Source: Paramesorhizobium salinisoli
GTDB taxonomy: Bacteria > Pseudomonadota > Alphaproteobacteria > Rhizobiales > Rhizobiaceae
Assembly: GCF_003335045.1 (NCBI RefSeq)
Contig: NZ_QOZG01000005.1
Span: 248,001 to 312,000 of the forward strand
Direction: 5' to 3'
Length of the DNA stretch: 64,000 nucleotides
The position numbers and the translations under genes were made by a program. The notes under the pieces are model-generated. The model was given only the letters and a program-made list of their open reading frames with translations, made no database searches and was not told where the DNA came from. Positions 30,555 to 54,035 of this stretch are shown in pieces. Position 1 is the first letter of the stretch. Every line of letters starts with the position of its first letter.

Positions 30555-31490
30555 TTGCAGAAGCGTATTTCCGTCGTGACGCCGTTTTATAACGAATCTG
30601 TTGCTGTCGGATACTACGAACGAGCGATTGCTTCGCTCATCGCACAGATGCACGACTATCATTTCGAGATTGTTTGCGTCGACGATGGAAGTTCGGACGA
30701 CACGCTAGAGCAATTGATCGCAATCGCTTGCCGCGACCCCAATTATGTCGTGGTCGAGCTCTCCCGGAATTTTGGCAAGGAACCGGCGCTTACGGCAGGT
30801 CTGGATATCGCCAGTGGCGATGCTGTCATTCCTTTCGACGCTGATCTCCAGGATCCGCCCGAGATTATCCCTGACATGGTGAAAGCCTGGGAAGCCGGTG
30901 CCGAAGTGGTACTCGCCAGAAGATCGGACCGGGCCACGGATTCGCATGTGAAGCGCAAGACTGCTGAATGGTTCTATCAGCTCCACAACAAGGTTTCGCG
31001 CACCAAAATACCGGAGAATGTCGGTGATTTCCGCCTGATGGATCGTCGTGTTGTTGATGCGCTGAAGCAATTGCCGGAACGCCAGCGGTTCATGAAGGGT
31101 CTGTTCGCCTGGGTCGGGTTCAAGACAGATGTCATTGAATATGTTCGCCAGCCGAGATCAGCCGGTAAGACAAAATTTTCGGGCTGGCGCCTGTGGAATC
31201 TCGCACTTGAGGGAATGACTGGGTTCAGCACGGTTCCGTTGCGCATCTGGACTTATATCGGCCTTTTTGGCGCTCTGATCTCCGTTGCCTTTGCCGTCTT
31301 CATCGTCGTCAGGACGATTCTTTTCGGCGTTAGCACCCCCGGCTACGCCTCGTTGTTGGTCGCGGTCACGTTTCTGGGTAGCCTCCAGTTGATAAGCATC
31401 GGTATAATCGGTGAATATATCGGGCGCATATATCTCGAAACCAAACAGCGGCCCAATTACCTCATCCGCCACCTGTATCGGAAATCCTGA
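30555..31490 (+). CDS. GtrB-like polyprenyl-phosphate glycosyltransferase (GT2)
   Basis: A 311-residue GT-A enzyme anchored by two C-terminal transmembrane helices (about residues 228-255 and 262-290). VDDGSSDDT and FDADLQDPPE are the nucleotide- and metal-binding motifs of the GT2 DPM1/GtrB group. Such enzymes transfer a sugar from its nucleotide to undecaprenyl phosphate on the cytoplasmic face. The start is TTG, with GGGAG 9 bases upstream; no in-frame ATG is available nearby. The stop overlaps the next start by 1 base (TGATG). It heads a four-gene coupled unit that also holds a methyltransferase, a GtrA-like flippase and a polytopic protein. The sugar is unknown. Confidence 0.88.
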   Translation: MQKRISVVTPFYNESVAVGYYERAIASLIAQMHDYHFEIVCVDDGSSDDTLEQLIAIACRDPNYVVVELSRNFGKEPALTAGLDIASGDAVIPFDADLQDPPEIIPDMVKAWEAGAEVVLARRSDRATDSHVKRKTAEWFYQLHNKVSRTKIPENVGDFRLMDRRVVDALKQLPERQRFMKGLFAWVGFKTDVIEYVRQPRSAGKTKFSGWRLWNLALEGMTGFSTVPLRIWTYIGLFGALISVAFAVFIVVRTILFGVSTPGYASLLVAVTFLGSLQLISIGIIGEYIGRIYLETKQRPNYLIRHLYRKS

Positions 31491-32224
31491 TGGACCCAAG
31501 CGCCTACACTGAAATCTATGAAGTCGAGAACAAGCATTGGTGGTTCATCGCGCGCAGGAAGATTATCGAAGGTGTGATCCGTTCGCTCGATCTTCCTCCT
31601 GAAAGCAACATTCTTGAATTGGGCGCTGGTACCGGCGGCAATCTGGAAATGCTTTCGCGATTTGGCAAGGTTCGCGCCGCAGAAATGGATGATTATGCCC
31701 GAGAAATGGCTATCAAGCAGACGGGTGGGAAATTTGACGTTCAATATGGGTGTTGTCCTGAGATCATTCCCTTCGAGGGCGTCAAGTTCGACCTCATCTG
31801 CATGTTCGATGTGCTCGAACATATCTTTGAAGATGTCGAGACCCTTTCTGCGTTGAAAAGACGGCTTGCCCCTAAGGGACGTCTGCTCATCACAGTCCCC
31901 GCTTATCAATGGATGTGGTGCGGGCACGACGAATTCCTTCATCATATGCGGCGCTACACCAGCGGCGAGTTAAGTCGGAAGCTTCGAAAGACAGGATATC
32001 ATGTCCGGAAAATCACCTACTTCAATTCACTACTCTTTCCGCTTGCTGCGCTCGTCAGGGTCAAGGACCGGCTCACCAGCAAAAAAGTGGAATCTGTAAA
32101 CCAGTTGCCCTCACCGATGCTGAATGAGTGGCTTGAAAAGATTTTCGCGTGCGAAGCCAGGCTCGTAAAGAACAGTCATTTGCCATTCGGGGTTTCGCTC
32201 CTTGCCATTGCCGAAAACACCTAG
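31490..32224 (+). CDS. SAM-dependent methyltransferase
   Basis: A 244-residue class I methyltransferase with the SAM motif ILELGAGTGGNLEML and post-motif FDLICMFDVLEHI. The N-terminal YEVENKHWWFIARRKII block is seen in methyltransferases of polysaccharide clusters. It is translationally coupled to the GT2 gene before it and overlaps the GtrA-like gene after it by 23 bases. Position inside a polyprenyl-phosphate sugar module suggests it methylates the sugar or its lipid-linked form; the target is inference. No membrane segment is seen, so it acts in the cytoplasm. Confidence 0.85.
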   Translation: MDPSAYTEIYEVENKHWWFIARRKIIEGVIRSLDLPPESNILELGAGTGGNLEMLSRFGKVRAAEMDDYAREMAIKQTGGKFDVQYGCCPEIIPFEGVKFDLICMFDVLEHIFEDVETLSALKRRLAPKGRLLITVPAYQWMWCGHDEFLHHMRRYTSGELSRKLRKTGYHVRKITYFNSLLFPLAALVRVKDRLTSKKVESVNQLPSPMLNEWLEKIFACEARLVKNSHLPFGVSLLAIAENT

Positions 32225-32603
32225 CCAGGTGCCATCGCTGGGCACCAAGGTTTTCCGCTTCTCGACCTCGGGCGCGGCGACAACTCTGCTCCACCTTTTG
32301 GTGGCCAGTTTCTGCGCTTATGCATTCGCATTCAGCGGCACTGCCAGCAACGGGGTAGCATTCATAATCGCAAACGGCTTTTCCTATTTGATGAACTCGA
32401 TATGGAGCTTCGAGGCTGGCATTTCCATTGCCGGCTTCCAGCGCTTCTTTCTTGTGTCGGTGATCGGTCTGCTTGCTACACTTGCAATTTCGGCGGTAGT
32501 CGAGTGGCTGGGATACCCCGCCTTCTATTCGATCGCCACGGTGGTCGTGCTCCTGCCTGCGCTTTCCTTCATCGTGCACAATTTGTGGACTTTTCGAACA
32601 TGA
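32202..32603 (+). CDS. GtrA-family membrane protein, putative sugar-lipid flippase
   Basis: A 133-residue protein with four predicted transmembrane helices. The pattern FRFSTSGAATTLLHLLV near the N-terminus, ANGFSYLMNSIWSFE in the middle and a C-terminal SFIVHNLWTFRT are GtrA-family hallmarks. GtrA proteins are thought to flip undecaprenyl-phosphate-linked sugars across the inner membrane. The start is probably the TTG at 32202 or the TTG at 32208; both lie inside the end of the methyltransferase gene. The stop overlaps the next ATG (ATGA). It should work with the GtrB-like enzyme and the polytopic protein beside it. Confidence 0.82.
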   Translation: MPLPKTPSQVPSLGTKVFRFSTSGAATTLLHLLVASFCAYAFAFSGTASNGVAFIIANGFSYLMNSIWSFEAGISIAGFQRFFLVSVIGLLATLAISAVVEWLGYPAFYSIATVVVLLPALSFIVHNLWTFRT

Positions 32604-34390: not shown

Positions 34391-35524
34391 CTAAGATGGT
34401 CCTTTCCCCGCGGATCCCGCGACAAGCTCGGCATAGATTTCCGCATACGCTGCGGACATTTTTTCCATGGTGAAGTTTTGCTCATAGCGCCTGCGAGCGG
34501 CCCTCCCCATGCGCTGAACCTCGGAAGGATTATTCCAGAGCGATTGCATCGCCTTTGCGAGGGCGGCCGGATCATTCGGCTTTACGTTCAGCCCGGTTTC
34601 TCCATCAAGATTGACGAAGCTCGTTCCTGTGCCGATCTCGCAGGAGATCATCGGCTTTGCGAACATCGACGCCTCGACAAGCGAGAGCCCGAAAGCCTCC
34701 GAACGCAGGTGGGAGGGGAAAACCGCCGCATAGCACAGATCGAGCAGAGCAACCTTATCCTCGTCCGGCACGGCACCGAGAAAATGGACGTCGTGCAAAT
34801 CCAGGCGCTCGGCCTGGGCCCGCAAATCCTTTTCCGTAGGCCCCGCTCCGACGATGACTACGGGAAAGCCGGTCATCTTCGCAGCTTCCAACAGGATATG
34901 AATGCCTTTGTAGTATCGCAGCACGCCGACGAACAGGAAGAATTTCTCCGGCAGCCGGGCGCGCCATCCGGCTTTCACATCCTCCTGGACAGATGGATAT
35001 GCTGCCCGGTCAAGGCCGATGGGCACCACGACAGTCTTGTTCCGGAAATCGTTCAGATACTCGCTGGATTCCAGATAGTTGGGCGACGTGACCACAATCC
35101 TGTCGACACTGTTCAGGAAGCGGTTCATGAGCGGCTTATAGCCACGCATGAGCAGCCGCTGTTTCACGATGTCGGAGTGATAGGTAACAATCGATGGCTT
35201 GCCGAGCCGCGTGGCGAAATGGACGATGTCCATGAAAGGCCAGGGGAAATGATAGTGGATGACATCGGCCCGCTTTCCCAGCTCGGCAAAACGGTGAAAA
35301 GCCTCAAATGAAAAACCGGTGGATGCTGCCTCAAGGTTGAGCCGTGCCTTGTGGGCCCAATGGCCGTCGAATTCCACCGTGTTTTCCACGGGATGGCGGC
35401 TCAGTGAAAGCACCTCGGTTTCCACGCCCTGCGCAGCAGTGCCCTTCGCTATCGCGTGGATCGTCCGCTCGATGCCACCAAACGTGTCGGGCCAATAGGT
35501 CTTGAAGAAATGGAGTATCCGCAT
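34391..35524 (-). CDS. Glycosyltransferase, GT4 family
   Basis: A 377-residue GT-B fold enzyme. The N-terminal half has GGIERTIHAIAKG in the acceptor-side domain and the C-terminal half has the donor-binding EX7E motif in SEAFGLSLVEA. FLFVGVLRYYKGIHILLEA marks the start of the second Rossmann domain. It has no membrane segment and should act at the cytoplasmic face on the growing O-polysaccharide. It is the last gene of the minus-strand core operon, 1 base after the stop of the gene before it. With GDP-rhamnose and GDP-mannose as the sugars made here, one of them is its likely donor; the linkage is unknown. Confidence 0.88.
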   Translation of the reverse strand: MRILHFFKTYWPDTFGGIERTIHAIAKGTAAQGVETEVLSLSRHPVENTVEFDGHWAHKARLNLEAASTGFSFEAFHRFAELGKRADVIHYHFPWPFMDIVHFATRLGKPSIVTYHSDIVKQRLLMRGYKPLMNRFLNSVDRIVVTSPNYLESSEYLNDFRNKTVVVPIGLDRAAYPSVQEDVKAGWRARLPEKFFLFVGVLRYYKGIHILLEAAKMTGFPVVIVGAGPTEKDLRAQAERLDLHDVHFLGAVPDEDKVALLDLCYAAVFPSHLRSEAFGLSLVEASMFAKPMISCEIGTGTSFVNLDGETGLNVKPNDPAALAKAMQSLWNNPSEVQRMGRAARRRYEQNFTMEKMSAAYAEIYAELVAGSAGKGPS

Positions 35525-35525
35525 C

Positions 35526-36641
35526 TCAGCGCGCCCGGTCTTCTATGGCTTCATGAAAGACGGCCATCAGTTCATTGGCGCTTTTTTCCCAGCTGAAGCG
35601 TGCTGCATTGGCGCGCGCCTTTGCAGCAAGACCCTTATAGAGAACATCATCCTCCGCCAGCCGTGCAAGGCCGGCGGCCATTGATTGCACATCGCTTGGA
35701 TCAATCAGCAGCGCGGCATCGCCTGCCACTTCGGGCATGGACGAGGAATTGGAGGTGAGAACGGGAATGCCAGCAGCATTTGCCTCGATGATGGGGAAAC
35801 CGAACCCCTCATAGAAGGAGGGCATGGCGAGAAATCTCGCATTTGCGTAAAGTCCGGCCAATTCGTCATCCGAGACATATCCGGTCAGGCGGACGAAAGG
35901 CTCGATGCCGAGCTGGGCTATATGCTGCCTCAAGTCGCCGAGATGCCAGCCCTGGCCGCCGGCGATCACCAGGAGCAGGTCCTTTCTGGTCCGTTCCGGC
36001 AGGCGCGCATAGGCCTCAAGTAGGTTCGGCAGGTTCTTGCGCGGCTCAAGCGTACCGACAAAGAGCGCATAGGCGCGGTCGATATGATGCTTCTCCGGCA
36101 CATCTTTCGAAGCGCCCTGCCCGATCGCGCTGAGGCCCGAATGAATGACCCTCGTCTTATCGGCGCAGGCGGGGAAAAGCACCTTCAACGCATCGGCCGT
36201 CGCAGTGGAAACCGCAACGATGCGATCCGCGCTTCCCAGCGCCGGCTTCATCAGCAAGCGCTCCGCAGCCCAAGTCTGCCACCGCATGGTTTCGGCGGCA
36301 TGGACCCATACCAGATCATGGATAGTGACGACCCGGGGAATATGCCGATCGAGAAAACGCGGCAGGCGATGCGCCGGCCCCCAGAAGACATCGAGCTTAT
36401 CTAGTCGAGCCAGGCGCGGCAGAGCCGTCTGCCCCCAGACCATGCGTCGGACACCGCCCGGATAACTGCCGATCCGCACAGTCGTGCCGGGCCAGGGCGA
36501 CAAGGCGGAAGCCGGCTTCTCCGGAAGATAGAGAAAAAGCGCGTTGTTCTTGGACGCTAGGTGGCGGCACATCTCGAAGAGATAGCGGCCGATGCCCGTC
36601 AATTCGGGAACGAGATTACGGGCGTCAATGCCGATTTTCAT
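35526..36641 (-). CDS. Glycosyltransferase, GT4 family (mannosyl/rhamnosyl type)
   Basis: A 371-residue GT4 enzyme. The N-terminus MKIGIDARNLVPELTGIGRYLFEM is typical of mannosyltransferases in O-polysaccharide clusters. The Rossmann switch FVGTLEPRKNLPNLLEAY and the EX7E motif YEGFGFPIIEA are intact. The ATG lies 22 bases after the stop of the long triple glycosyltransferase gene, so it belongs to the same operon. It is predicted to add a GDP-activated deoxyhexose or mannose in the cytoplasm. Similarity to the first domain of the triple protein (RGIGRYTTSLV, GGADWRKNIERL) suggests related donors. The precise product is unknown. Confidence 0.88.
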   Translation of the reverse strand: MKIGIDARNLVPELTGIGRYLFEMCRHLASKNNALFLYLPEKPASALSPWPGTTVRIGSYPGGVRRMVWGQTALPRLARLDKLDVFWGPAHRLPRFLDRHIPRVVTIHDLVWVHAAETMRWQTWAAERLLMKPALGSADRIVAVSTATADALKVLFPACADKTRVIHSGLSAIGQGASKDVPEKHHIDRAYALFVGTLEPRKNLPNLLEAYARLPERTRKDLLLVIAGGQGWHLGDLRQHIAQLGIEPFVRLTGYVSDDELAGLYANARFLAMPSFYEGFGFPIIEANAAGIPVLTSNSSSMPEVAGDAALLIDPSDVQSMAAGLARLAEDDVLYKGLAAKARANAARFSWEKSANELMAVFHEAIEDRAR

Positions 36642-36663
36642 GGAAATAACGGTACTCAGTGCT

Positions 36664-39600
36664 TTAACGCGATAATGCGATAAGCATATTATGTAGGCGC
36701 CGCGCTACTCGGGAATAGCGATGCTCCTGCCTCCAATGCTCAGCATATAAAAGCGTGTTCTCTGCTTGCGCATCATTTGAACGCAATTTTGCGCGAATAT
36801 CCATAATACCTTCGGCGATATCTCTCGGAGTATAGCCCGGAAACTTGAAAACGGCCTGCTGTACGTCATCGAATATTGGTAGCGGAGTAGCCGCAACGGG
36901 TCGCCCTGCGGCCAAGCCGTAGCGCACGGCAGCGCTAGATGACTCCCCGGTGCTTTGATACGGGAAAATTATAAGATCGGCTTCTTCAAGCTTTTTCAGA
37001 CAATCTATATCGTCCAGGAAATCATTCGTCATTCGGACGGCATGAGACAAACCGAGATCTTGTATTTTTTCTTTTGCCTTATTAATCATCTCCTTTGAAA
37101 TTGGTGCCGGATGCTCAGCATTAACCATATTTAACGAGACTTCTACGCCACGATCACGCACTATCGCTACCGCCTCGATAGCTTCCAAAAGCCCTTTATG
37201 AGGCAAGAAAAAGCCATATGTTGCAATTTTAAAGGCCGATTCCTCTCCAATAGCAGCAGTGCTGACATGGTCGATTACCCCGTGCGGGAATAACGCTACA
37301 TTATCTACAACACCCAACGCCTTAAGTCTGTTCATGTCATTGTGTGTATGAACCAATACTCTTTTGCATCGTCGTAGACTAGTCACAAGTTTTTCAAGCT
37401 TCCGCTCCGGTGCGTGGGCAGGATCTACGGTCGCATGTAGAAATATAACAACATGCCGACCATCTTCGACATTCTTATTTATAAACCAATTAAGCCTATC
37501 GAGATCAAAAAAGCCATAATTAAACTGGATAATAACTATATCTATACCCGATCTCACAACAGACCCATAGAGCGCGCTCAATTTCTCAAAACTATTCTCG
37601 CTCCAGCAAAAATCGACAGAATTATTGTAATTCTCCTTTTCGCGGAAATTTGTACGAGCAAATATCTTTACTTCAGCGTCAATGTTATTAATAAGATGCT
37701 TTGAATATTCTGCAATTCCACACCGCGTATCCCAAGTGGAAACCCAACCAATCTTTGGCTCCGGCTGCAATGAGCCCTTAGACCATTGCCTCGCCGCCGA
37801 GGTCAGTCTCCCCGCAACATGTTCCCACTTAAATTCATCAAGCAATAGCTTCCTGCCTCGCGCCGCACGGCTCCGACGTTCGCCTGCCGGCGTCCGAAAA
37901 ACCTCCTGTATGACGGACGCAAGAGCATCAACATCGGGCACCGCCCAGACCGAATTAAAAACATCAAAATGGGTTTCTGCGGGTTCGAAACTAAAATCCA
38001 CGAGCCAAGCGGTCTCTTCACTACAAAAATCCAGCTGCCCGCCCCAGTTAGTCGTGATAACGGGCAAACCTGCAAGCATGGCTTCCGCAAGCGGTAAGCC
38101 AAACCCCTCAGCAAAGCTGGGCGCCACCAAGACATCGCATTGTTCATAAAGGCTCTTTAGCTGCCCCTCCGATATATCTTCCATGATGATTTGGACGTCG
38201 GGAAAATTTTCGTTGCCACGCCGTTCGGTCTCCAGAATCCCCTCAACGTTGTTATGCGGGTTTGGAAAGGTCTTAATGATGAGGGATACATCATCCCTTG
38301 CCGTAAATGCCTTTCCAAATGCCTTAATCAGAACATCAGCCCCCTTGCGTGGGAAGCATGAGGAAACGTGTAAGAACCGAAACTTCTTTCCCTGGATCTT
38401 GTAAGAATTATCCGCGGCCACTCGATCCCAATGGTCTACGCCACAGCCGGAAGTCGACAACGGTATACTGACACCATTATCGATAAGAATTTTCTCGACA
38501 TGCTTGGAGAGACAAGTAATCCCTTGAAGGTAAGCATTGAAATCATCAACCCATGAAGATGGAAATCCGGATTCTTCCCATGCATAGTGATGTAGGAGAT
38601 TCAGTTTCGCATGCATGTCACTCACGCGAGGAGGATAAAGGTTGCGACTTACCACGTCGACTTGCAAGTTGTTCTTCATCAAGCCTTTATCGTGAAAGCT
38701 TTGCAAATCCGGGTTCTTTTTTAAGAATATTTCATCAGGCGGGAAATCTCCTGGCCCCTCTGTGGAATACAGACTGACATTATGGCTGAGAGCAGAAAGA
38801 GCCCTTGCTGTTTCACGATTCAATAAGGCCAAACTATAAGAACTATCAAATGGGCCTTCGATCTTCCATTCGATCGCCTTTGGCAAGCCAAATCGCTGTC
38901 GCAGTATTCGATCAACCTCATTGTCATTCTTTGCAACAGCATCAGCTACGGAAGCAGCCATCATTTTGGCCTGTTGGGATTCCTCACGCAAAAGCTTGGC
39001 AACATCCTCAACAAAACATCTATAATTCTTGGATCTCTGCTGCGAGACTTGCTCGTATGTGCTGCAATCCTCTAACTTCCCATTGCGGATGATGGAGGTA
39101 AGAGATTGAATAGCTGTATTAGCACTCTCATCCCACGTGAATTTTTTTGACTGACGTTCCGCATTGTACTTTAATTTTTGAGTAAATACTGGATCCAGTA
39201 ATGCAGATTGTATTTTATCTGCAATACTTTTCTCATCAAACGGATCAAACAATGCCTCATCTAGGCCCACAATCTCAGGCATGGAAGATGTATTGGCCGC
39301 GATAACTGGAGCCCCGCAGCGCATCGCCTCCAAAATGGGCAAACCCAACCCCTCATGCCACGATGGAAAAACAAACAAGGAGCAGTTGCTATATAACTGC
39401 CGCAATACTTCGTCCGAAATAAATCCGGTGAAGATCACGTCACCGGCAGGCACTCTCAAGGTTTTGGCCAAATGCCGCAATCGAGCAACATCTCCGTCTG
39501 GCATACGCCCTGCCAAGACAACTTTATATTGGCCACGAATCGAGGATGACAGCTTGGAATAAGCGCCGATTAATCTCTCTATATTCTTCCGCCAATCCGC

Positions 39601-40293
39601 TCCGCCTGTATATAATATATACTTATCTTCCACACCTATGCTTGATAAAAAATTTGCATCGATGAAATCTTCGCGATAGAATACATCGCTTGTGGCCCCT
39701 CTTATGTTAACAATACGCCCTTCATCTATATTTAAATGCTCTATACCTTCGTTTCTTGAACTTTCAGATATTGAAAATAAAATATCAACATTTTTTATAA
39801 ATTTAATCTTCTGCAAATAGAAATCACTATATATTTTATCTCCCTCCAAATACTCTTTCGGGTTAAGAAATGGTATTATATCATAAATAATTGTTGATAT
39901 TATATACTTTCTATCGTGCCGCATTATTGGAGTTATTGCATCATCCACATATCCTTCAAACAAGCTACACACGTGCAACACGTCAACATCAAGATCCGCT
40001 ACTAGCTTTTCAAAAATTAACTCTGAAACTCCGCGACGCAAATTATTCCCGGGATTGGATGCACGCACAGGCCCAGGAGCATTAAATAAAATGAAGTTTT
40101 CAGGTGGGATTTTTCCTGAAAAAAGTTCCTTGATAGGAGCAATGGTTTCGGGAAATAGGCAATTCAGAATCAAATATATCTCGCTATTACTTGCCGTATC
40201 CAATATCGCCCGCACAAGTGAGGTTGTGTATCTTCCAATACCGCGATAGCGACTCTCCGTTTGAGCCCCCTGCATGTCAAACGCAATTCGCAT
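36664..40293 (-). CDS. Three-domain glycosyltransferase (three GT-B modules in tandem)
   Basis: A 1209-residue protein with three consecutive GT-B units. Domain 1 (about 1-400) starts MRIAFDMQGAQTESRYRGIGRYT, has GGADWRKNIERL and the EX7E motif HEGLGLPILE (Glu314/Glu322). A helical linker (410-465) follows. Domain 2 (about 470-835) has SSCFPRKGADVL and AEGFGLPLAE (Glu729/Glu737). Domain 3 (about 845-1209) starts GWVSTWDTRCGIAEYSKHL and keeps only the first Glu of its motif (TGESSSAAVRYG, Glu1117). Multi-domain enzymes of this kind polymerise O-polysaccharides in ABC-exported systems. The gene is AT-rich, for instance 25% G+C over 39721-39780, unlike the flanks. It is flush with the FkbM gene upstream. 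Confidence 0.9.
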   Translation of the reverse strand: MRIAFDMQGAQTESRYRGIGRYTTSLVRAILDTASNSEIYLILNCLFPETIAPIKELFSGKIPPENFILFNAPGPVRASNPGNNLRRGVSELIFEKLVADLDVDVLHVCSLFEGYVDDAITPIMRHDRKYIISTIIYDIIPFLNPKEYLEGDKIYSDFYLQKIKFIKNVDILFSISESSRNEGIEHLNIDEGRIVNIRGATSDVFYREDFIDANFLSSIGVEDKYILYTGGADWRKNIERLIGAYSKLSSSIRGQYKVVLAGRMPDGDVARLRHLAKTLRVPAGDVIFTGFISDEVLRQLYSNCSLFVFPSWHEGLGLPILEAMRCGAPVIAANTSSMPEIVGLDEALFDPFDEKSIADKIQSALLDPVFTQKLKYNAERQSKKFTWDESANTAIQSLTSIIRNGKLEDCSTYEQVSQQRSKNYRCFVEDVAKLLREESQQAKMMAASVADAVAKNDNEVDRILRQRFGLPKAIEWKIEGPFDSSYSLALLNRETARALSALSHNVSLYSTEGPGDFPPDEIFLKKNPDLQSFHDKGLMKNNLQVDVVSRNLYPPRVSDMHAKLNLLHHYAWEESGFPSSWVDDFNAYLQGITCLSKHVEKILIDNGVSIPLSTSGCGVDHWDRVAADNSYKIQGKKFRFLHVSSCFPRKGADVLIKAFGKAFTARDDVSLIIKTFPNPHNNVEGILETERRGNENFPDVQIIMEDISEGQLKSLYEQCDVLVAPSFAEGFGLPLAEAMLAGLPVITTNWGGQLDFCSEETAWLVDFSFEPAETHFDVFNSVWAVPDVDALASVIQEVFRTPAGERRSRAARGRKLLLDEFKWEHVAGRLTSAARQWSKGSLQPEPKIGWVSTWDTRCGIAEYSKHLINNIDAEVKIFARTNFREKENYNNSVDFCWSENSFEKLSALYGSVVRSGIDIVIIQFNYGFFDLDRLNWFINKNVEDGRHVVIFLHATVDPAHAPERKLEKLVTSLRRCKRVLVHTHNDMNRLKALGVVDNVALFPHGVIDHVSTAAIGEESAFKIATYGFFLPHKGLLEAIEAVAIVRDRGVEVSLNMVNAEHPAPISKEMINKAKEKIQDLGLSHAVRMTNDFLDDIDCLKKLEEADLIIFPYQSTGESSSAAVRYGLAAGRPVAATPLPIFDDVQQAVFKFPGYTPRDIAEGIMDIRAKLRSNDAQAENTLLYAEHWRQEHRYSRVARRLHNMLIALSR

Positions 40294-41529
40294 TTATTTT
40301 CCCCTATCGACTCGCTTTAACTCTTCAGTGATATCGCGATATATTTTCATCGCCTTGGGGCCGAGATTATCGCCTGCAGTACTATCGGAACCAGACCGGC
40401 TAACACGTGTCTGTGAGGCTAAAAAATCTGAAGATTGCCGAGACGAGACAAACGCCAATAGCCGTTGTTCTAAAGAAGGGAAAAATCTGGCTAACCTGCG
40501 TAGATATTTTTTGAGTTGTGGACGCCTGTTAACGCTGAGAAGTGCATATTCAAGTATCACCGTCTTATCAGCAATCCGTTTAAATTTTTGAACAAAACGA
40601 TGTACCTCCCGGAGAGGCCTTGTTAATCTCCACGATCTACTTGAATAGATACGCGATATCTCATAAAAAAGTTCATCCGATTTTCGTCCATTTTCTTCAG
40701 ACCGAGAAGAAATAATTTTGAAATCGCGATGCAATTCTTCATTCATTAACTCAAGTCGCTTGATATAAAAAGTAAACCTCTCCGATTCCCGTCGCTGTTT
40801 CTCTATATATGCATTTAGTTCACTTGTCTCTACTAACGGTGATGTATGAGATAACACAAACCGATCAAAAAAGTTTGGGCCTTGTCCGAATGTTTTTTCC
40901 AGTTCAGGGTGTTTTTTTGACACGTAAAACCGGCTCAGACCATCGAAATAAACGAATTTGTAGCCGAGCTTGATCAAAATCCGCTCCCACGTATCATGAG
41001 AGGGAACTTGAGTATTTGGGACCGTGCTTTCGACAACAACAACCCACGGTCGGACCTTCGAAGGTAACCAACTCTCAATGACCGATTTTTCCATCCCTTC
41101 AACGTCAACTTTGAGCCAATGGATTTCCCGGTCGCCGATCCGGTCAAAAATCGTGGCCAAGGGTTGCAGAGGAACCTCCGTTTCAACGACCTCCAACCCC
41201 TTCTCTCGATGGGTCTCGGCGAGCTCCAGATCGCCGGTACTCAAACCTGTTTCCGGTATTTCGAAGAAGCGGATACTGTTGCCGCCCTTGCCGATTGCAA
41301 TCTGAAGAACATCCTCATCAGGCCGGTTTTCACGTAATTTATCGGCATAGGCTGCGGTCGGCTCCACATGAACACCGCGCCAGCCTTTTTCATAAAAACC
41401 CCGGCTCACGGAGTCGACGACCGGATCCTGAGCGCCAATATCGATATAAAAGCCATTCTCGACGTGCTGCAACGCACGCCATAAAATAACATCCTCAAAA
41501 TTTTGCGCGTATGAAATGAACATCATCAT
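40294..41529 (-). CDS. FkbM-family methyltransferase with coiled-coil tail
   Basis: A 411-residue protein. Residues about 1-225 form an FkbM-type SAM methyltransferase (FYIDIGAQDPVVDSVS, WLKVDVEGMEKSVIE). Residues about 232-300 are highly charged and helical, a likely coiled coil, then a basic SRSWRLTRPLRE motif and a helical tail. The start overlaps the wzt stop as ATGA, although two further ATG codons follow at once. The position, between the Wzt exporter and the long glycosyltransferase, resembles WbdD, the chain-capping methyltransferase/kinase with a coiled-coil ruler in E. coli O8/O9a. A kinase domain is absent. The capping role is inference. Confidence 0.85.
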   Translation of the reverse strand: MMMFISYAQNFEDVILWRALQHVENGFYIDIGAQDPVVDSVSRGFYEKGWRGVHVEPTAAYADKLRENRPDEDVLQIAIGKGGNSIRFFEIPETGLSTGDLELAETHREKGLEVVETEVPLQPLATIFDRIGDREIHWLKVDVEGMEKSVIESWLPSKVRPWVVVVESTVPNTQVPSHDTWERILIKLGYKFVYFDGLSRFYVSKKHPELEKTFGQGPNFFDRFVLSHTSPLVETSELNAYIEKQRRESERFTFYIKRLELMNEELHRDFKIISSRSEENGRKSDELFYEISRIYSSRSWRLTRPLREVHRFVQKFKRIADKTVILEYALLSVNRRPQLKKYLRRLARFFPSLEQRLLAFVSSRQSSDFLASQTRVSRSGSDSTAGDNLGPKAMKIYRDITEELKRVDRGK

Positions 41530-43546: not shown

Positions 43547-43598
43547 ACCAAGTGCCTTCCGCGAAGTACGGGCCGGGGATGTCCTGCCTGATGGATTA

Positions 43599-44597
43599 CT
43601 ATGATGCTGACCCAGTGCGTTGTCGTGCTCCCGGGTCCTGCTCCGCCGCTACGCGTTGCTTCCAATCGTCCAGGACATCGATCAAGGTGGTCTCGAACGA
43701 GATTTCCGGCTTCCAATTGAAGACTTCCAAAGCGGCACCCGCATCTCCGCTCGCGATCGCCACTTCGCTACCGCGCAAGCGTTCAGGATCAACGCGGATT
43801 TCGATCTTCAGGCCGGACTTCTCAACGAGAGCATCAAGAATGGCATGAATCTGGCGAGGTTTGCCGGAGGCTAGATTGAATACGCGACCAAAAGCATCGG
43901 GAATATCGGCGAGGGCTGCATCCGCATAGGCGCGGACCACATCGCGAACATCCATGAAATCTCGCTGCGCAGCGAGATTTCCCACTTCGATCAGCGGCGG
44001 CTTCAAGCCTGCAGAGATTTCCGCAACCTGCCGGGCAAAGGCCGGCACAACATAAGCGTCGGATTGGCCCGGCCCCGTGTGATTGAATGGCCTGAAACGA
44101 ATGGATTTCAACCCCTCACCCGCCAACTGCCCAAGGAGGATATCCGCAGCCGCCTTGGTCGCACCATAGACGCTGAGCGGCTTGAGGGCGGCCTTTTCAG
44201 TGACAGGTTCGCCGTCTGCCTCGATAAAGGATTCTCCATAGGCGTCGGCGCTTCCCGCAAAAATGAGGCGGGCATGCGGGGCGATCTCCATTGCAGCCTG
44301 GGCGACGTTCATCGTGCCCGTGACATTGATATCCCATGCCCGCCGATAGGCTCTGCGGGCGTCATTGGGTGCCGCGACCGCCGCCAGATGAACGATGGCG
44401 GTCGGCTTCGCCTCCCGGATCGCCTCAGCGACCTGATGGTAATCGGTGATGTCCACCCGTTGACCGGCCGCGCTTCCGTGCCCGACAGGAAAAACAGATA
44501 ACCCGCCCAAAGACTTCCTCGAAGCCAGCTCGCGCTGAAGCCAGGTTCCGACAAAGCCGTTCGCACCGGTTATAAGAATGCGGTTTTCAAGCACCAT
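43599..44597 (-). CDS. rmd: GDP-4-keto-6-deoxy-D-mannose reductase (GDP-D-rhamnose forming)
   Basis: A 332-residue short-chain dehydrogenase/epimerase fold enzyme. The NAD(P) motif is ITGANGFVG, the catalytic YxxxK is in VYGATKAAAD and the family block RFRPFNHTGPGQ follows. Blocks such as EVGNLAAQRDFMDV and RVFNLASGKPRQI match Pseudomonas RMD, which reduces the GMD product to GDP-D-rhamnose. A related enzyme makes GDP-6-deoxy-D-talose, so that product is the main alternative. It lies 37 bases after gmd and completes the pathway from mannose-1-phosphate. Confidence 0.85.
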   Translation of the reverse strand: MVLENRILITGANGFVGTWLQRELASRKSLGGLSVFPVGHGSAAGQRVDITDYHQVAEAIREAKPTAIVHLAAVAAPNDARRAYRRAWDINVTGTMNVAQAAMEIAPHARLIFAGSADAYGESFIEADGEPVTEKAALKPLSVYGATKAAADILLGQLAGEGLKSIRFRPFNHTGPGQSDAYVVPAFARQVAEISAGLKPPLIEVGNLAAQRDFMDVRDVVRAYADAALADIPDAFGRVFNLASGKPRQIHAILDALVEKSGLKIEIRVDPERLRGSEVAIASGDAGAALEVFNWKPEISFETTLIDVLDDWKQRVAAEQDPGARQRTGSAS

Positions 44598-44634
44598 TCA
44601 GACACCTTTGCCGGGACATCCCAGCATAGAGGGT

Positions 44635-45627
<993 letters not shown>

Positions 45628-45695
45628 TTATTCTCGCACGAACAGACATTTGCCGCCTGCTCAACCCCTGCTCTTCATCACCTGAATGATAGAGC

Positions 45696-47111
45696 TCATT
45701 TTCGTCCGTAGACATCCTCGAAGCGCACGATATCGTCTTCGCCCAGATAATCCCCGCTCTGTACCTCGATCATCACAAGGCGCATGATTCCGGGATTTTC
45801 AAGGCGGTGCTTGTTTCCACAGGGAATATATGTGGATTCGTTGGTGGTCAGGATCAGTTCGCGATCACCATTCACAACTTTTGCCGTGCCGCTCACGACA
45901 ACCCAGTGCTCCGACCTGTGATGATGCATCTGCAGACTGAGGCTTGCTCCCGGCTTCACCTCGATGCGTTTGATCTTGAAGCGCTCGCCTTCCTCGAGGA
46001 CCGTGTAGGTGCCCCAGGGCCGGTGCACCGTCCTATGCAGGCTGTGAGCCTCGTGCCCGCTGTCCTTCAACTGCGAGAAGAGCTGCTTGACGTTCTGGGC
46101 CTGGTCCTTGTGCGCGACCAGAACCGCGTCCGCCGAATCGACGATGATCAAATCCTTCACGCCGACCGCGCCGATGAGACGGTCGGAGCTTTGGACGTAA
46201 CAGTTTTCCGCCTCGTGAAGCACCGTATCGCCATTGATCCTGTTGCCGTGGGCATCGGGGCTGGTCAGATCGGCCAGGGCATTCCACGAGCCTATATCGC
46301 TCCAGCCGATATTGCAGCCGACGACGGCGATATTGGCAGCCTTTTCCAGGACGGCATAATCGATCGACTTCTTCGGCACCTGCGCAAAATTTTCCGCATC
46401 CAGTTCGATCTGGGTGCCGCTCGCCACCGGCGATTGTTCGGCGGCAAGTAGGCTCTTGCGGCTCTGGTCCAGAATATCAGGACAATGCTCTTCCATCAGT
46501 TTCGTCATGGTTCCGGCGGAAAAGCAGAACATGCCCGAATTCCAGTAGAAGCGCCCCGATGCGATATATTCCCTGGCGCGCGCCAGATCGGGCTTTTCGA
46601 CGAAGCGGACGACATCCTCGCCCGCGGCCTCGATATAGCCATATCCAGTTTCGGGATATTCCGGCATGATTCCGAATGTCACCAGCCGTCCCGCTTGCGC
46701 GAGCGTGATCGCCTTTACCGCCGCCGCGCGAAAGGCCTCGATATCGCGGATCATATGATCGGCCGGGAAAAGCGTGATGATCGCATCGTCGCCATAGACC
46801 TGCTGCACATGCAATGCCGCAATGGCGGTTGCGGCCGCCGTATCGCGGCCCATCGGCTCCAGCAGATAGGTGCATTCCAGCCGGGGAATATCCAGTTCGC
46901 GATATTCATCCTCGGTCTTGAAGAAAAGCTCGCGATTGGTGATCGTCAGGACCTGCTCGACATCCGGCAGCGCCGCGGCGCGCAGGAAGGCATGCTGCAA
47001 AAGGCTCTTTCCATCCGCCAGCCTGATGAACGGCTTTGGATGGGTTTCCCGCGAAACGGGCCACAGGCGAGCGCCCGCTCCCCCACTCATGATCGCCGGT
47101 ATGATCTTCAT
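45696..47111 (-). CDS. manC: Bifunctional mannose-1-phosphate guanylyltransferase / mannose-6-phosphate isomerase
   Basis: A 471-residue type II enzyme. The N-terminal nucleotidyltransferase (about 1-340) has GGAGARLWPVSRE and FVEKPD. The C-terminal cupin (about 360-471) has HRSEHWVVVSGTAKV and the isomerase residues. It converts fructose-6-phosphate-derived mannose-6-phosphate and, after ManB, makes GDP-D-mannose from mannose-1-phosphate. Its ATG overlaps the manB stop by one base (TAATG). Because it supplies both the isomerase and guanylyltransferase steps, the island makes GDP-mannose without other genes. Confidence 0.95.
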   Translation of the reverse strand: MKIIPAIMSGGAGARLWPVSRETHPKPFIRLADGKSLLQHAFLRAAALPDVEQVLTITNRELFFKTEDEYRELDIPRLECTYLLEPMGRDTAAATAIAALHVQQVYGDDAIITLFPADHMIRDIEAFRAAAVKAITLAQAGRLVTFGIMPEYPETGYGYIEAAGEDVVRFVEKPDLARAREYIASGRFYWNSGMFCFSAGTMTKLMEEHCPDILDQSRKSLLAAEQSPVASGTQIELDAENFAQVPKKSIDYAVLEKAANIAVVGCNIGWSDIGSWNALADLTSPDAHGNRINGDTVLHEAENCYVQSSDRLIGAVGVKDLIIVDSADAVLVAHKDQAQNVKQLFSQLKDSGHEAHSLHRTVHRPWGTYTVLEEGERFKIKRIEVKPGASLSLQMHHHRSEHWVVVSGTAKVVNGDRELILTTNESTYIPCGNKHRLENPGIMRLVMIEVQSGDYLGEDDIVRFEDVYGRK

Positions 47112-48553
47112 TATCGAGAGAACTCCCTGTCGCTCAACTTATCGTTCAGGGCGCGCCTCGCGCGCTCCAGTCCCCAGGCCAGCAATTCGGCTGCGCGCTC
47201 CTTCGACGCCGCCTCCGTATAGCAGCGCAATTCAGGCGCGTTGCCCGACGCGCGATAATGCACGAGATCACCGCTCGACAGCACGATGCGTGTGCCGTCG
47301 ATGCGGTCGCTTTCCCCGATGGAACCGACATCCGCGAAAAACACCTCCACGGTTCCGGCATCTTCGAGGCTTTTCAGAAAGGCGGCACTTTGCTCCGCCG
47401 CCACATGCTCTATCCGGCCGCTGCCGGTAAATCGCGCTGGCAACCCATTGACGAGCTGCGACAAGGGCACGCCTTCCTTTGCCGCCATCGCGAGGACGCT
47501 GAGGATCGGCAGCATGGCATCGCGCGTCGGCAGGGCATCGAGCGAACGGTCTGCAGTCCCGACCGAAGTGCCGAGCAGCACGCCGCCATTGGCTTCGAAG
47601 CCGATGATGCAGCGGCAGCCATCGGCTGCTGCCTTGTTCATGCCCTCGATGACATAGGGCGAGCCGACGCGAGTGCGGTAGACCTTAACGAAAAAACCGC
47701 AATGCTCGATAGAGGTGTTGGATGTCACCGGCGTCACCACGGCGTCGGCATCGAGGAAGCGGGCCGTCAGTAGCCCGACCATGTCGCCACGCAGGAAATT
47801 GCCTTTTTCATCCGATATCAGCGGCCTGTCGGCATCGCCGTCGGTCGAAACGAGCGCGTCGAGCTTGTACTCGCGGCAGGCCTTTTCGGCAAAGGCGACG
47901 TCCTCGGGGCGAAGCGCCTCCGTATCAACGGGGACGAAGACATCGGAACGCCCAAGGCCGACAGCTTCCGCGCCGGCCTTTGTCAGGATATCGACCATGA
48001 CATCGCGCGCGACCGAACTGTGCTGATAGACGCCGATCCTCCTGCCGGACAGCACGCCCGGGGCCAAGAGGGACGCGCAGCGCTCGACATAACGCTGCAA
48101 AGCCTCTTGCGATATTTCGGCATCGTCGCTTTCAGGCGCGGCAGGCTTTTCACGATCGAGAACCGCCAGAATTCCTGCCTCGTCCGCCTTGTCGATTTCG
48201 CCGTCAGGGCGATAGAATTTCAGACCGTTGCGGTCGGCGGGAATATGGCTCCCGGTCACCATGATGGCGGGCGCCTTCAGGCTCAGCGCGCGCAGGGCCA
48301 GAGCCGGCGTCGGCAGCGGCCCACAATTTTCAACGCGCATGCCGAAGGCCTTTGCGGCGGCGATGCAGGCGGCGGCAATGCGCGGACTGCTCGAACGCAG
48401 GTCATAGCCCACAAGCAGAAGGCCATCGGCCGGCACGGCATGCCGGTCTTGCATATGCGTCAGGAAAGCGAGCGTGTAGGCCGCGCAGACGTCATCGCCA
48501 AGCTCGGTGACAAGCCCGCGCAGGCCACTGGTTCCAAATTTCAAATCGCTCAT
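47111..48553 (-). CDS. manB: Phosphomannomutase
   Basis: A 480-residue member of the alpha-D-phosphohexomutase family that interconverts mannose-6-phosphate and mannose-1-phosphate. The phosphate motif FGTSGLRG, the active-site Ser loop TGSHIPADRNGLKF, the metal loop DGDADRP, the sugar loop GFEANGG and the C-terminal RASGNAPELR are all present. GFEANGG (rather than GEMSGH) fits the mannose/N-acetylglucosamine-type enzymes. The ATG at 48553 is preferred over a GTG two codons upstream. It is the first of the four sugar-nucleotide genes, which run manB-manC-gmd-rmd, and there is a 186-base gap before it where a promoter could lie. Confidence 0.92.
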   Translation of the reverse strand: MSDLKFGTSGLRGLVTELGDDVCAAYTLAFLTHMQDRHAVPADGLLLVGYDLRSSSPRIAAACIAAAKAFGMRVENCGPLPTPALALRALSLKAPAIMVTGSHIPADRNGLKFYRPDGEIDKADEAGILAVLDREKPAAPESDDAEISQEALQRYVERCASLLAPGVLSGRRIGVYQHSSVARDVMVDILTKAGAEAVGLGRSDVFVPVDTEALRPEDVAFAEKACREYKLDALVSTDGDADRPLISDEKGNFLRGDMVGLLTARFLDADAVVTPVTSNTSIEHCGFFVKVYRTRVGSPYVIEGMNKAAADGCRCIIGFEANGGVLLGTSVGTADRSLDALPTRDAMLPILSVLAMAAKEGVPLSQLVNGLPARFTGSGRIEHVAAEQSAAFLKSLEDAGTVEVFFADVGSIGESDRIDGTRIVLSSGDLVHYRASGNAPELRCYTEAASKERAAELLAWGLERARRALNDKLSDREFSR

Positions 48554-48739
48554 ATCCACATCATTGATTTGAGAAATGTCGGAAGCAATCGGCTTTACGC
48601 CGATGCTGTTCGTTCAGGATTCAATCAGGAAGCGCCGTCTAGCCGTTTTTCCCGGAAAAGACAACCGAACCCATGTTCCTCCGAAATGCCCAATCCCAAG
48701 AATGGCACCAAGTGCGTGCAGATTAGCTGAAAGCATGGT

Positions 48740-51456: not shown

Positions 51457-52389
51457 TCACCAAAGACGGCGTATTGCAAATTCACATAGGGCCACCATCC
51501 CATCGCCGAGAATAGTGACCAATCGATTACCCAGAGCGACAGCCGTCGCAATTCCCGCGGGAAAGCCGGCAGCCGAAAGGCCTGCGATGAGAACGGCTTC
51601 GCGGACGCCGAGGCCGCCAGGCGCGCCTGGGACGACGAAGCCTATGAGCCAGGCAGCCGCTCCGATACCGATGAGTTCAGCCGTGCTGCCGGTGCCGCCA
51701 AAGTTCAGCGCTCTGCAGAGCACTACGATCAGCAGACCGTTGCCGATGAAGAACAGGATATAGAGGAAAAATGCCATTGCAGCGGCGCTGAGGGCCTTCC
51801 GCCCAACCGATGCCATCCTGGAACGAAACAGGAGAATGATTCCGACCGCCAGGATGATGAAGCCCGTTGCCATCAATGCCGTGATCAGCATCGGATCATT
51901 CAAGCCATATCGCGCCAGGGCGTCGACAAGGACTGATTTGGACAAAAGCGTGGCCATCGCCGTCGCCGCAAGCACGAGGATTGATAATTCTCCGACTTGC
52001 GCGAAGGCAAGCGCCCTGTTGGAAACTCCGGCTTTCCTCGCCATCGCAAAGCGTCCGACCATGTGAAGGACGTTGCTCGGCAGATATTTGTAAATCTGCG
52101 TCCGCCCGAAAATAGCCAGCGCATCCTTCAGGGGGAGTGCCGGATCATCGACGGCAGCCAGCAGCCGGTGCCACGCCAACCCAATGAGTTGCAAAACCGC
52201 TGCATAGGCGACGGCGCCACCGGCGACTGCGGCTAGAAATAACGGAGAAATCAGCTGCTGCTGAAGCTCCCCGAAGGAGCGGTGGATTGCCATGCCGACA
52301 AAGGCGAGTGCTGCTAAACTTACAGCAATGCCGATCATCTGAACAACAGATCTGACCTTGCTTTCCCGCTCGATTCCCTCGGAGTGCAT
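51457..52389 (-). CDS. Flippase-like membrane protein (UPF0104 / lysylphosphatidylglycerol synthase TM-like)
   Basis: A 310-residue inner-membrane protein with about eight predicted transmembrane helices. The block RTQIYKYLPSNVLHMVGRFAMARKAG and the later GFVVPGAPGGLGVREAVL are hallmarks of the UPF0104/LPG synthase TM family, several members of which are proposed to flip lipid-linked sugars. It takes the same place in its module as the GtrA protein does in the 30.5 kb module, although the two families differ. The start at MHSEGIERES is 4 bases after the methyltransferase stop; the upstream ATG lies inside that gene. Flippase activity is inferred. Confidence 0.8.
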   Translation of the reverse strand: MHSEGIERESKVRSVVQMIGIAVSLAALAFVGMAIHRSFGELQQQLISPLFLAAVAGGAVAYAAVLQLIGLAWHRLLAAVDDPALPLKDALAIFGRTQIYKYLPSNVLHMVGRFAMARKAGVSNRALAFAQVGELSILVLAATAMATLLSKSVLVDALARYGLNDPMLITALMATGFIILAVGIILLFRSRMASVGRKALSAAAMAFFLYILFFIGNGLLIVVLCRALNFGGTGSTAELIGIGAAAWLIGFVVPGAPGGLGVREAVLIAGLSAAGFPAGIATAVALGNRLVTILGDGMVALCEFAIRRLW

Positions 52390-52393: not shown

Positions 52394-53017
52394 TCAGTCA
52401 CACCGGCACAGCACCATCGTCCAGGGAAGCGGCTTGCGCACATCCACGATCTTCACCGATTTGCTCAGCAGGTCGAGGAAGGATGCCGACGACCAGTGCT
52501 GGATATGTCCCGGCGTATTGCCCATATCCGTGATGTATTTTCCGCGGGCGAGATTGAGAGCCCGCCAGATCGGTTCACGCGGCACGCTGACGAGGAGATA
52601 GGGCTTTGCCAGAGATCTCAGGACAGCCAAGGCCTGTTCCGTATCGGGCACATGCTCCAGCACCTCGCAGCAGATCACCAGTTCGGCTGAGGCTTCTTCC
52701 GCTTTCAGATCGAAAAGCGAGCGGGTTTCGAATTTCGGCGCGATCCCGCGCGTGGCGCATTGCTGATTGGCCTCGGCAACACTGACCGCCTCCAGATCGC
52801 TTCCACGGACATCCCATTCACGGTCGTGAAGACGCATCGAGAGATTGCCCTCCCCGCAACCGACTTCATAGGCGCTGCGAACACCGGTCTTTGCCGTTAG
52901 GGCATCGAAGCTATCGAGAAAGCCGTTCATCAGATAACGGGCAATCGGGTTCCGCGTGTTGTATTTGTCGTAATAATTGCCCGGGACGTTGTCGTAGGCT
53001 GCGTGCGTTTGCGTCAT
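52394..53017 (-). CDS. SAM-dependent methyltransferase
   Basis: A 207-residue class I methyltransferase with the SAM motif AYEVGCGEGNLSMRL and post-motif AELVICCEVLEHVPD. It has no membrane segment. It starts 1 base after the stop of the GT2 gene and ends 4 bases before the flippase-like gene, so all four genes of this module are transcribed and probably translated together. The subfamily differs from the methyltransferase at 31490, although both lie second in modules of the same order. A sugar or lipid-linked sugar is the likely methyl acceptor. Confidence 0.85.
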   Translation of the reverse strand: MTQTHAAYDNVPGNYYDKYNTRNPIARYLMNGFLDSFDALTAKTGVRSAYEVGCGEGNLSMRLHDREWDVRGSDLEAVSVAEANQQCATRGIAPKFETRSLFDLKAEEASAELVICCEVLEHVPDTEQALAVLRSLAKPYLLVSVPREPIWRALNLARGKYITDMGNTPGHIQHWSSASFLDLLSKSVKIVDVRKPLPWTMVLCRCD

Positions 53018-53018
53018 C

Positions 53019-54035
53019 TTATCGTTTTCCGCTTATCTTCTTCGGCTTTACCATAATATGGTCGACGTCCGGGATGATGTGTGGAGATGTGCGCTCGCCA
53101 AGCTCCTGCCGCAACAGCCTGACCTTGATCTCCTCGAGCAATTGCCGGTTGACGGCGATCAGTTCGGCGAGAATGCCGCTCATTGCGAGGATGCCGGCCA
53201 GAGCCAGCAACGCGCCGGAAAGGATGAGCGACTGGATATTGCCGCTGCCATCTCCCATCAGGTAATGATAGAGAAACCGTGCGATCATCAACAGTCCCGG
53301 CAGTGCAACGATGGCCGCGCAGACCGAGAAGAATCGCAGCGGCGCATAGACGATGAAGATTCTCACCACGGTGATCAGCGAGCGGCGCACATAGCTCGGG
53401 ATGCTTTTCACCAGCCTCGATGGGCGCAGATCGCCATTCACCTGGATCGGCACCGACGTGATCGGAATGTTCTTGCGCCCGGCCTGGATGATCGTTTCCA
53501 GCGTATAGGTATACGGGTTGAAGACATTCAGCCTGATAGCGGCATCGCGGTGGATGGCGCGAAAGCCGCTCGGTGCGTCGGCTACTTCGGTATCGCTGGC
53601 TATCTTGACTACCCAGCTTCCGAACTTCTGCAGGAATTTCTTGATCAGTGAGAAATGCTCGATATCGCTGATCGGTCGCGCGCCGACGACGATCAGCGCG
53701 CGCTTTTCCAGGATCGGGCGGACGAGATCGGGAATGCACGATGCGTCATACTGATTGTCGGCATCGGTGTTGATAATGACATCAGCGCCGAGCTTCAACG
53801 CCGTTTCGATGCCGGTCATAAAGGCTTTGGCGAGGCCCTGATTGTGCGGAAGCGATACGATATGATCGACACCATTCTCCCGCGCGACTTCGACCGTGCG
53901 GTCCGTGGAGCCGTCGTCGATGACCATCCATTCCACCGTCTCGAAGCCTTCGACCTGCCGGGGCAGGTCGGCCAGGGTAATGGCCAGCGTTCCCTCCTCG
54001 TTGAGACAAGGTATCTGTATGATGAGCTTGTGCAA
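53019..54035 (-). CDS. Membrane GT2 glycosyltransferase, polyprenyl-phosphate sugar synthase type
   Basis: A 338-residue GT-A enzyme: IPCLNEEGTL at the N-terminus, MVIDDGSTDRTV and the DxD-like NTDADNQYD (Asp91/Asp93). Two transmembrane helices lie at about residues 233-257 and 268-293, followed by a charged tail. The architecture matches DPM1/ArnC-like enzymes that load a sugar on polyprenyl phosphate. The start is TTG, with AAGGGGGA 5 bases upstream. It heads the second four-gene module, which runs towards lower coordinates. The upstream DNA holds a decayed ugd gene. Sugar identity is unknown. Confidence 0.87.
   Translation of the reverse strand: MHKLIIQIPCLNEEGTLAITLADLPRQVEGFETVEWMVIDDGSTDRTVEVARENGVDHIVSLPHNQGLAKAFMTGIETALKLGADVIINTDADNQYDASCIPDLVRPILEKRALIVVGARPISDIEHFSLIKKFLQKFGSWVVKIASDTEVADAPSGFRAIHRDAAIRLNVFNPYTYTLETIIQAGRKNIPITSVPIQVNGDLRPSRLVKSIPSYVRRSLITVVRIFIVYAPLRFFSVCAAIVALPGLLMIARFLYHYLMGDGSGNIQSLILSGALLALAGILAMSGILAELIAVNRQLLEEIKVRLLRQELGERTSPHIIPDVDHIMVKPKKISGKR

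What the first reader, a model, noticed from the sequence alone, without database searches (positions are those of the whole stretch)
30555..54035. Two four-gene modules with the same order but different flippase and methyltransferase families flank a polysaccharide core
On the plus strand (30555-34258) the order is membrane GT2, SAM methyltransferase, GtrA-like flippase, large polytopic protein. On the minus strand (54035-48740) the order is again membrane GT2, SAM methyltransferase, flippase-like UPF0104 protein, large polytopic protein. Within each module the genes overlap or lie at most 14 bases apart. The known Gtr O-antigen modification trio is GtrA, GtrB and a polytopic transferase; a methyltransferase built in as the second gene is not part of it. 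The shared order with unrelated flippases suggests a recurring design: a sugar is loaded on polyprenyl phosphate, methylated, flipped and added to the polymer in the periplasm.
Basis: partly seen in the sequence, partly recalled or inferred. Interest (0 to 1): 0.78.

Follow-up and report, generated by a model that had tools for sequence, protein, structure and literature searches.

The report
Sugar-loading modules with built-in methyltransferase
Two gene sets beside an O-antigen cluster each look able to load a sugar onto a membrane lipid, methylate it, flip it across the membrane and attach it to the surface polymer, and the methylating gene of the first set turns out to be a tightly coupled partner of such sets in many bacteria.

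Summary
In detail: two intact, tightly packed gene quartets flank an ABC-transporter O-antigen cluster. Module 1 is a Gtr system (GtrB, GtrA, DUF6311 polytopic protein) with a methyltransferase (MT) after gtrB. The MT belongs: among its 80 nearest relatives (59 non-redundant), 49 of 59 have a GtrB-type GT2 and 40 of 59 a GtrA or SMR flippase alongside; of 32 with GT2, MT and GtrA, 25 keep the order GT2-MT-GtrA. The MT usually overlaps or abuts gtrB, while the polytopic gene is exchanged. Conversely only 2 of 52 GtrA genes sampled without regard to MTs have this MT, and some more distant MT relatives have no Gtr partner. Module 2 is looser: relatives of its GT2 and UPF0104 genes occur with MTs in 3 loci, in another order, and its polytopic protein was found nowhere else. 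GT-C folds were not shown: one model failed, the other protein was not modelled. Best reading: O-methylation of a polyprenyl-phosphate sugar between loading and flipping, as ArnD tailors Ara4FN. New variant of a known kind; the chemistry is inferred.

The parts
30555..31490 (+). GtrB-type GT2, predicted polyprenyl-phosphate sugar synthase (module 1, gene 1)
   Evidence: PF00535 5e-32; PHROG 'GtrB-like O-antigen conversion' 5e-123; solved relative Synechocystis sll0501 1e-103
31490..32224 (+). class I SAM methyltransferase (P0002), 1-base overlap with GT2 (module 1, gene 2)
   Evidence: Methyltransf_23 4.6e-15; AlphaFold pLDDT 93.3 from 65 sequences, matches class I MTs; family contexts
32229..32603 (+). 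GtrA-type flippase (ORF listed from TTG 32202; GTG 32229 is a likely start)
   Evidence: PF04138 1e-12; the only GtrA match in this genome
32600..34258 (+). DUF6311 polytopic protein, predicted GT-C transferase; ATGA overlap with gtrA
   Evidence: PF19830 1.6e-16; Asp45, in the presumed first outer loop, invariant in 14 of 14; follows gtrA-gtrB on viral contigs L148, L149
53019..54035 (-). DPMS/AglJ-type GT2 (module 2, gene 1)
   Evidence: PF00535 4e-22; AglJ model 3e-23, below its cut-off; solved dolichol monophosphate mannose synthase 5mlz 3e-10
52394..53017 (-). class I SAM methyltransferase of another subfamily (P0006)
   Evidence: Methyltransf_25 2.6e-13; own genome only among 240 of the class at E 1e-12
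51457..52389 (-). LPG_synthase_TM / UPF0104 protein, candidate flippase
   Evidence: PF03706 37.7 bits, cut-off 33.4; relatives in L051, L052, L144
48740..51463 (-). large polytopic protein P0008 with two C-terminal repeats (residues 636-769 and 770-907, 82 of 130 identical)
   Evidence: no Pfam family; repeats; own genome only in 151 genomes of the family (E 1e-10) and 6 of the genus (E 0.001)
34391..48559 (-). ABC-transporter O-antigen core: three GT4 genes, FkbM MT, wzt with Wzt_C, wzm, rmd-like, gmd, manC, manB; the presumed source of the polymer acted on
   Evidence: Pfam scan of ten proteins

Best explanation
Each quartet is a four-component periplasmic glycosylation module. The GT2 puts a sugar on polyprenyl phosphate at the cytoplasmic face. 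The MT O-methylates that sugar while it is lipid-linked (inferred). GtrA (module 1) or the UPF0104 protein (module 2) flips it, and the polytopic protein transfers it to the O-polysaccharide that is made by the GDP-mannose/deoxyhexose core and exported by Wzm/Wzt. Module 1 is a Gtr system with a dedicated MT coupled to gtrB. Shown: gene content, overlap of the genes, recurrence, and exchange of the flippase and the fourth gene. Inferred: the sugar, the methylation step and its place before the flip, the acceptor, and the GT-C activity. Module 2 is assigned by analogy and less surely.
For: Identity of module 1: GtrB, GtrA, and DUF6311 after gtrA-gtrB on two viral contigs. MT association, 80 nearest of 543 confirmed relatives: GtrB-type GT2 within 3 kb on the same strand in 66 of 80 (49 of 59 non-redundant), GtrA in 48 of 80, SMR in 9 of 80; order GT2-MT-GtrA in 25 of the 32 non-redundant loci with all three; 49 GtrA genes within 5 kb of the MT in 734 kb against 2 further out in 648 kb. 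Coupling: MT domain start lies -11 to +20 bases from the GT2 stop in 33 of the 40 non-redundant loci with GT2 upstream, and at exactly the window's one-base overlap in 12 of 40 (by title almost all of these Alphaproteobacteria). Distances of MT to GtrB and to GtrA correlate over 32 loci (0.39, 0.39), more than GtrB to GtrA (0.24). Fourth gene: 70 nearby polytopic ORFs fall in 23 BLAST groups, some in GT-C-type families (PMT_2, GT87, YfhO, PIG-V). Two sets with different MTs in one locus also in Sphingobium L038: a GT2-MT pair, and on the other strand GtrA-GT2-MT-polytopic.
Against: 10 of 59 non-redundant MT loci lack the GT2 within 3 kb and 19 of 59 lack GtrA or SMR (some contigs are short). 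Of 23 plasmid records with an MT relative I read 11; 2 of these (L042, L044) have no same-strand partner. Of 7 relatives in the window's order, the 3 most distant (31-34% identity) have no partner, and in 1 (L021) GT2 and GtrA are on the other strand. 50 of 52 GtrA genes lack a strong match to this MT (2 of them have a weak one; other MT families were not looked for). DUF6311: of 13 non-viral loci other than the window, 7 have GtrB and GtrA, 2 of these with the MT beside them; 6 have no clear Gtr partner. Module 2's order is not conserved, and P0006 and P0008 have no close relatives found. No GT-C fold was shown. Correlated distances can also come from shared descent. Loci were picked for likeness to P0002, so the sample is not neutral.
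Confidence: 0.6

Rival explanations
1. The MT belongs to the module but acts elsewhere: on the nucleotide sugar before GtrB, or on the O-polysaccharide, as chain-capping MTs do. GtrB would then load an already methylated sugar, or the polymer would be methylated independently of the side group.
For: Methylation in the cytosol is chemically simpler (general knowledge), and this locus has another MT (FkbM, 40294-41529) beside a Wzt with Wzt_C, the layout of chain terminators such as WbdD (passage of PMC11127046). The MT fold is generic.
Against: The MT stands with gtrB and gtrA in modules with unrelated fourth genes. Precedents for tailoring at the carrier exist: AglP in the dolichol-phosphate-linked glycan pathway (passages of PMC4335974) and ArnD (recalled).
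Confidence: 0.25
2. Ordinary O-antigen gene shuffling: MTs are common in such loci, and the two same-order quartets in this window are a coincidence of mobile parts, not a design.
For: The region is low in GC; module 2's order is not kept in relatives; this MT is absent from most GtrA loci sampled and some distant MT relatives have no partner.
Against: For module 1 the association is far above chance: 49 GtrA near the MT against 2 further out, with the MT overlapping or abutting gtrB in most loci where gtrB precedes it. For module 2 alone this rival is still plausible.
Confidence: 0.12

Closest known systems
Gtr O-antigen modification system (gtrA, gtrB, serotype-specific gtr)
   Same: GtrB and GtrA homologues and a polytopic protein that varies between loci; accessory, P0004 in 5 of 151 genomes of the family
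   Different: A dedicated MT sits between gtrB and gtrA. In the Salmonella gtr paper searched (PMC3688519, two passages) 'methyltransferase' occurs twice, both for the DNA methyltransferase Dam
Arn pathway (ArnC, ArnD, ArnEF, ArnT)
   Same: Works alike: GT2 loading, tailoring of the lipid-linked sugar, SMR flippase, GT-C transfer to LPS. ArnC is the nearest solved relative of P0001 after sll0501. Cyanobacterial loci pair MT and GT2 with an SMR protein
   Different: Tailoring is methylation, not deformylation; acceptor presumed O-polysaccharide. Arn roles recalled
C. metallidurans pMOL30 ubiE2 / gtrM2A2B2
   Same: MT of the same family next to GT39, GtrA and GT2 (passages of PMC2864759 and PMC7563307)
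   Different: Order MT-GT39-GtrA-GT2; in the passages read they are listed as neighbours that aid metal resistance, not as one sugar-methylating unit. That the MT in L040 is ubiE2 is inferred from gene numbers
Three-component pentofuranose system of C. youngae O1 (GT136)
   Same: Side-chain addition to O-polysaccharide outside the cytoplasm; its GT-C carries a carbohydrate-binding domain, as P0008's C-terminal repeats might (passages of PMC11127046)
   Different: MATE flippase, ribose-phosphate donor; no MT among the three components
AglP/AglJ, Haloferax N-glycosylation
   Same: AglJ-type GT2 (P0005 matches that model below its cut-off) and an MT in a dolichol-phosphate-linked glycan pathway
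   Different: Archaeal, multi-sugar glycan, protein acceptor

Membership tests
Gtr three-component system (module 1) | GtrB-type polyprenyl-phosphate glycosyltransferase | tested here: met
   phrog_841 5e-123; sll0501 1e-103
Gtr three-component system (module 1) | GtrA flippase | tested here: met
   PF04138 above cut-off
Gtr three-component system (module 1) | Polytopic GT-C transferase as the variable component | tested here: inconclusive
   DUF6311 holds this place on two viral contigs and beside GtrB and GtrA in 7 of 13 other loci, with an invariant loop Asp, but the fold model failed
Gtr three-component system (module 1) | Adds a side group to O-antigen in the periplasm | not testable with these tools
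   needs structure analysis of the polysaccharide
Gtr-like system (module 2) | GtrB- and GtrA-type proteins | tested here: not met
   GT2 is DPMS/AglJ-like; flippase candidate is PF03706; the genome's only GtrA match is in module 1. It may work like one, but is not filed as one
Arn pathway | ArnD-type deformylase and Ara4N genes | not tested
   no dedicated search; the tailoring gene here is an MT
MTs that act on polyprenyl-phosphate sugars | Activity on lipid-linked sugar | not testable with these tools
   only class I MT fold and context

The most novel reading that the evidence does not exclude
A widespread four-component branch of the Gtr systems in which the sugar is O-methylated on its lipid carrier, and the methyl mark is a licence that the flippase or transferase reads before the sugar leaves the cytoplasm; unrelated MTs, flippases and transferases have been recruited to the same logic more than once, here twice in one locus.
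Probability: 0.25. Interest if true: 0.7.

Novelty: new variant of a known kind. Interest (0 to 1): 0.5.

Why it matters
Methylated sugars are common on bacterial surfaces, and for many the methylating step is unassigned (general knowledge). A gene pair as tightly coupled as gtrB and this MT could let one predict methylated side groups from sequence, and gives a defined in vitro test of whether Gtr donors are tailored on the lipid, as in the Arn pathway.

Tried and rejected
GT-C fold of P0004: AlphaFold with two viral-contig relatives gave pLDDT 38.3, unusable, so no fold search was run on it. P0008 against the DUF6311 profile: 4.9% probability, E 0.008, at similar positions, not evidence. P0008 relatives were sought in 151 genomes of the family, 6 of the genus, plasmids and viral contigs: own genome only. 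Solved-structure searches with A3 and P0008: none. MT fold search: generic class I MTs, TM about 0.5-0.6, among them sugar and prenyl-diphosphate MTs; not diagnostic. MT on phages: none in the phage collection; none in viral contigs with P0002 alone and one with the alignment, where the MT match abuts a GT2 (L147). Defence library: only 'mad2' hits to the generic MT domain, 3e-11 and 7e-6, rejected. A tree of 75 GtrB sequences mixes MT-bearing and MT-less modules (6 changes; shuffles average 14.8, 0 of 500 as low), so MT was gained or lost several times; long branches and MT-based sampling limit it. No promoter, repeat or RNA-family search was made.

Novelty searches: (open-licence PMC library only). 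In the listings and passages seen, none described an MT as a component of a Gtr system; subscription papers are not covered, and no paper was read whole.

After the one-time check I added (partners of DUF6311 and of MT relatives in the order). It brought results for and against; I left the odds as they were.
Full report
What is there. Both quartets are real, intact and compact. Module 1 (30555-34258, plus) is GT2, MT, GtrA, DUF6311; module 2 (54035-48740, minus) is GT2, MT, UPF0104/LPG_synthase_TM, and a polytopic protein without a Pfam family. They flank manB, manC, gmd, an rmd-like gene, wzm, wzt with Wzt_C, an FkbM MT and three GT4 genes, that is, an ABC-transporter-dependent O-antigen cluster, probably of a 6-deoxyhexose (inference; gene names by Pfam family and layout). 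The proteins of the two modules are not close kin: the GT2s align only over the GT2 domain and the MTs only over the Rossmann core.

What module 1 is. Its GT2 is GtrB: it matches the phage family named GtrB-like O-antigen conversion at 5e-123 and Synechocystis sll0501 at 1e-103. Its flippase is GtrA, the only match in the genome. DUF6311 follows gtrA-gtrB on two viral contigs. In 13 other non-viral DUF6311 loci that I read, 7 have GtrB and GtrA (in two of them GtrA is fused to DUF6311) and 6 have no clear Gtr partner. It has an invariant Asp in its presumed first outer loop in 14 of 14; GT-C enzymes usually have a DxD-like motif in an outer loop (PMC8035078, passage). Its fold could not be confirmed. 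P0004 was found in 5 of 151 genomes of the family including its own.

Is the MT part of it? Counting same-strand partners within 3 kb, all 80: GT2+GtrA 42, GT2+SMR 9, GT2 only 15, GtrA only 6, none 8. Non-redundant 59 (below 80% MT identity): 32, 4, 13, 4, 6. Of the 32 with GT2, MT and GtrA, the order GT2-MT-GtrA occurs in 25, and four other orders share 7. GtrA lies within 5 kb of the MT 49 times in 734 kb, and further out twice in 648 kb. Where GT2 precedes the MT (40 of 59), the MT domain begins -11 to +20 bases from the GT2 stop in 33, and at -1, exactly as in the window, in 12. The MT's distances follow those of GtrB and GtrA at least as well as these follow each other (32 loci).

Limits of that association. 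It was measured on the nearest relatives. Among 7 MT relatives in the window's order, one (DUF6311-GT2-MT-GtrA) has the whole set, two have GT2-MT, one has its Gtr genes on the other strand, and the three at 31-34% identity have none. Of 23 plasmid records with a relative I read 11, and 9 have a same-strand GT2, GtrA or SMR gene. In the reverse direction, 106 genomes of the class gave 58 GtrA genes; leaving out the window's own and one already held (L141), I fetched 56 in 53 loci; my profile recognised 52, of which 11 have a GtrB-type GT2 and 2 this MT, plus 2 weak MT matches. So the nearer MTs are mostly tied to a Gtr-type partner, while most Gtr parts do without this MT: a dedicated accessory, not a universal component.

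What is exchanged. The fourth gene changes: 70 polytopic ORFs near the MT fall in 23 BLAST groups (the list includes some that are not adjacent), and of 33 scanned, some match PMT_2 (4), GT87 (2), DUF2079, YfhO, PIG-V or PMT (1 each), while most match nothing. GtrA leads a longer polytopic ORF in 5 of the 80 loci and in Novosphingobium L037. In Calothrix and kin the flippase is an SMR protein, in the order MT-GT2-SMR. Two Cupriavidus plasmids have MT-GT39-GtrA-GT2.

Module 2. In four others the order is GT2, a 530-570 aa protein (no Pfam family in the two scanned), UPF0104, polytopic. Twelve loci were read: MT and UPF0104 are together in 3, two of which had first been found through UPF0104; a thirteenth, Chlorohelix L146, shows neither in its annotation. 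P0008 was found only here; its two C-terminal repeats (63% identical) may bind the polymer, like the binding domain of GT136 (inference).

How it probably works. Load sugar on polyprenyl phosphate (GT2), methylate, flip, transfer to the O-polysaccharide. That the MT acts between loading and flipping rests on its coupling to gtrB and gtrA whatever the fourth gene, and on precedents (ArnD, recalled; AglP). The MT model is confident (pLDDT 93.3), but its nearest folds are generic. Methylation of the nucleotide sugar or polymer is not excluded.

Verdict. A real and recurrent arrangement: a four-component variant of the Gtr system for module 1, and a functionally similar but less certain set for module 2. 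Interest 0.5: not a new kind of system, but a clear, testable extension that I did not find described in the papers searched (listings and passages only).

Noticed in passing
48740-51463: P0008 ends in two tandem domains (residues 636-769, 770-907), 82 of 130 identical, a duplication; Pfam finds no family.
   Followed up: partly
40294-41529: FkbM MT with a long charged, coiled-coil-looking C-terminus (by eye) beside Wzt with Wzt_C: possible methyl chain terminator.
   Followed up: no
54403-54930: Partial UDP-glucose/GDP-mannose dehydrogenase (175 aa, parts of two domains) next to module 2, apparently a remnant.
   Followed up: partly
36664-40293: 1209-aa protein with three GT4 stretches in the lowest-GC part of the window (0.44 at 38-40 kb).
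   Followed up: no
L113:3069-8401, L129:1972-9176, L139, L145: GT2, a 530-570 aa protein (no Pfam family in the two scanned, L113 and L145), UPF0104, polytopic protein; in the two cyanobacterial loci it stands divergently beside an MT-GT2-SMR module.
   Followed up: partly
L038:5009-12176: Sphingobium plasmid with GT2-MT on one strand and GtrA-GT2-MT-polytopic on the other, with a different MT: a second case of two sets in one locus.
   Followed up: partly
L148, L149: DUF6311 as the third gene after gtrA-gtrB on viral contigs; the L149 protein has no match in the annotated phage collection.
   Followed up: partly
L089, L061, L188: Two MTs of this family in one module, as if the sugar were methylated twice.
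   Followed up: no
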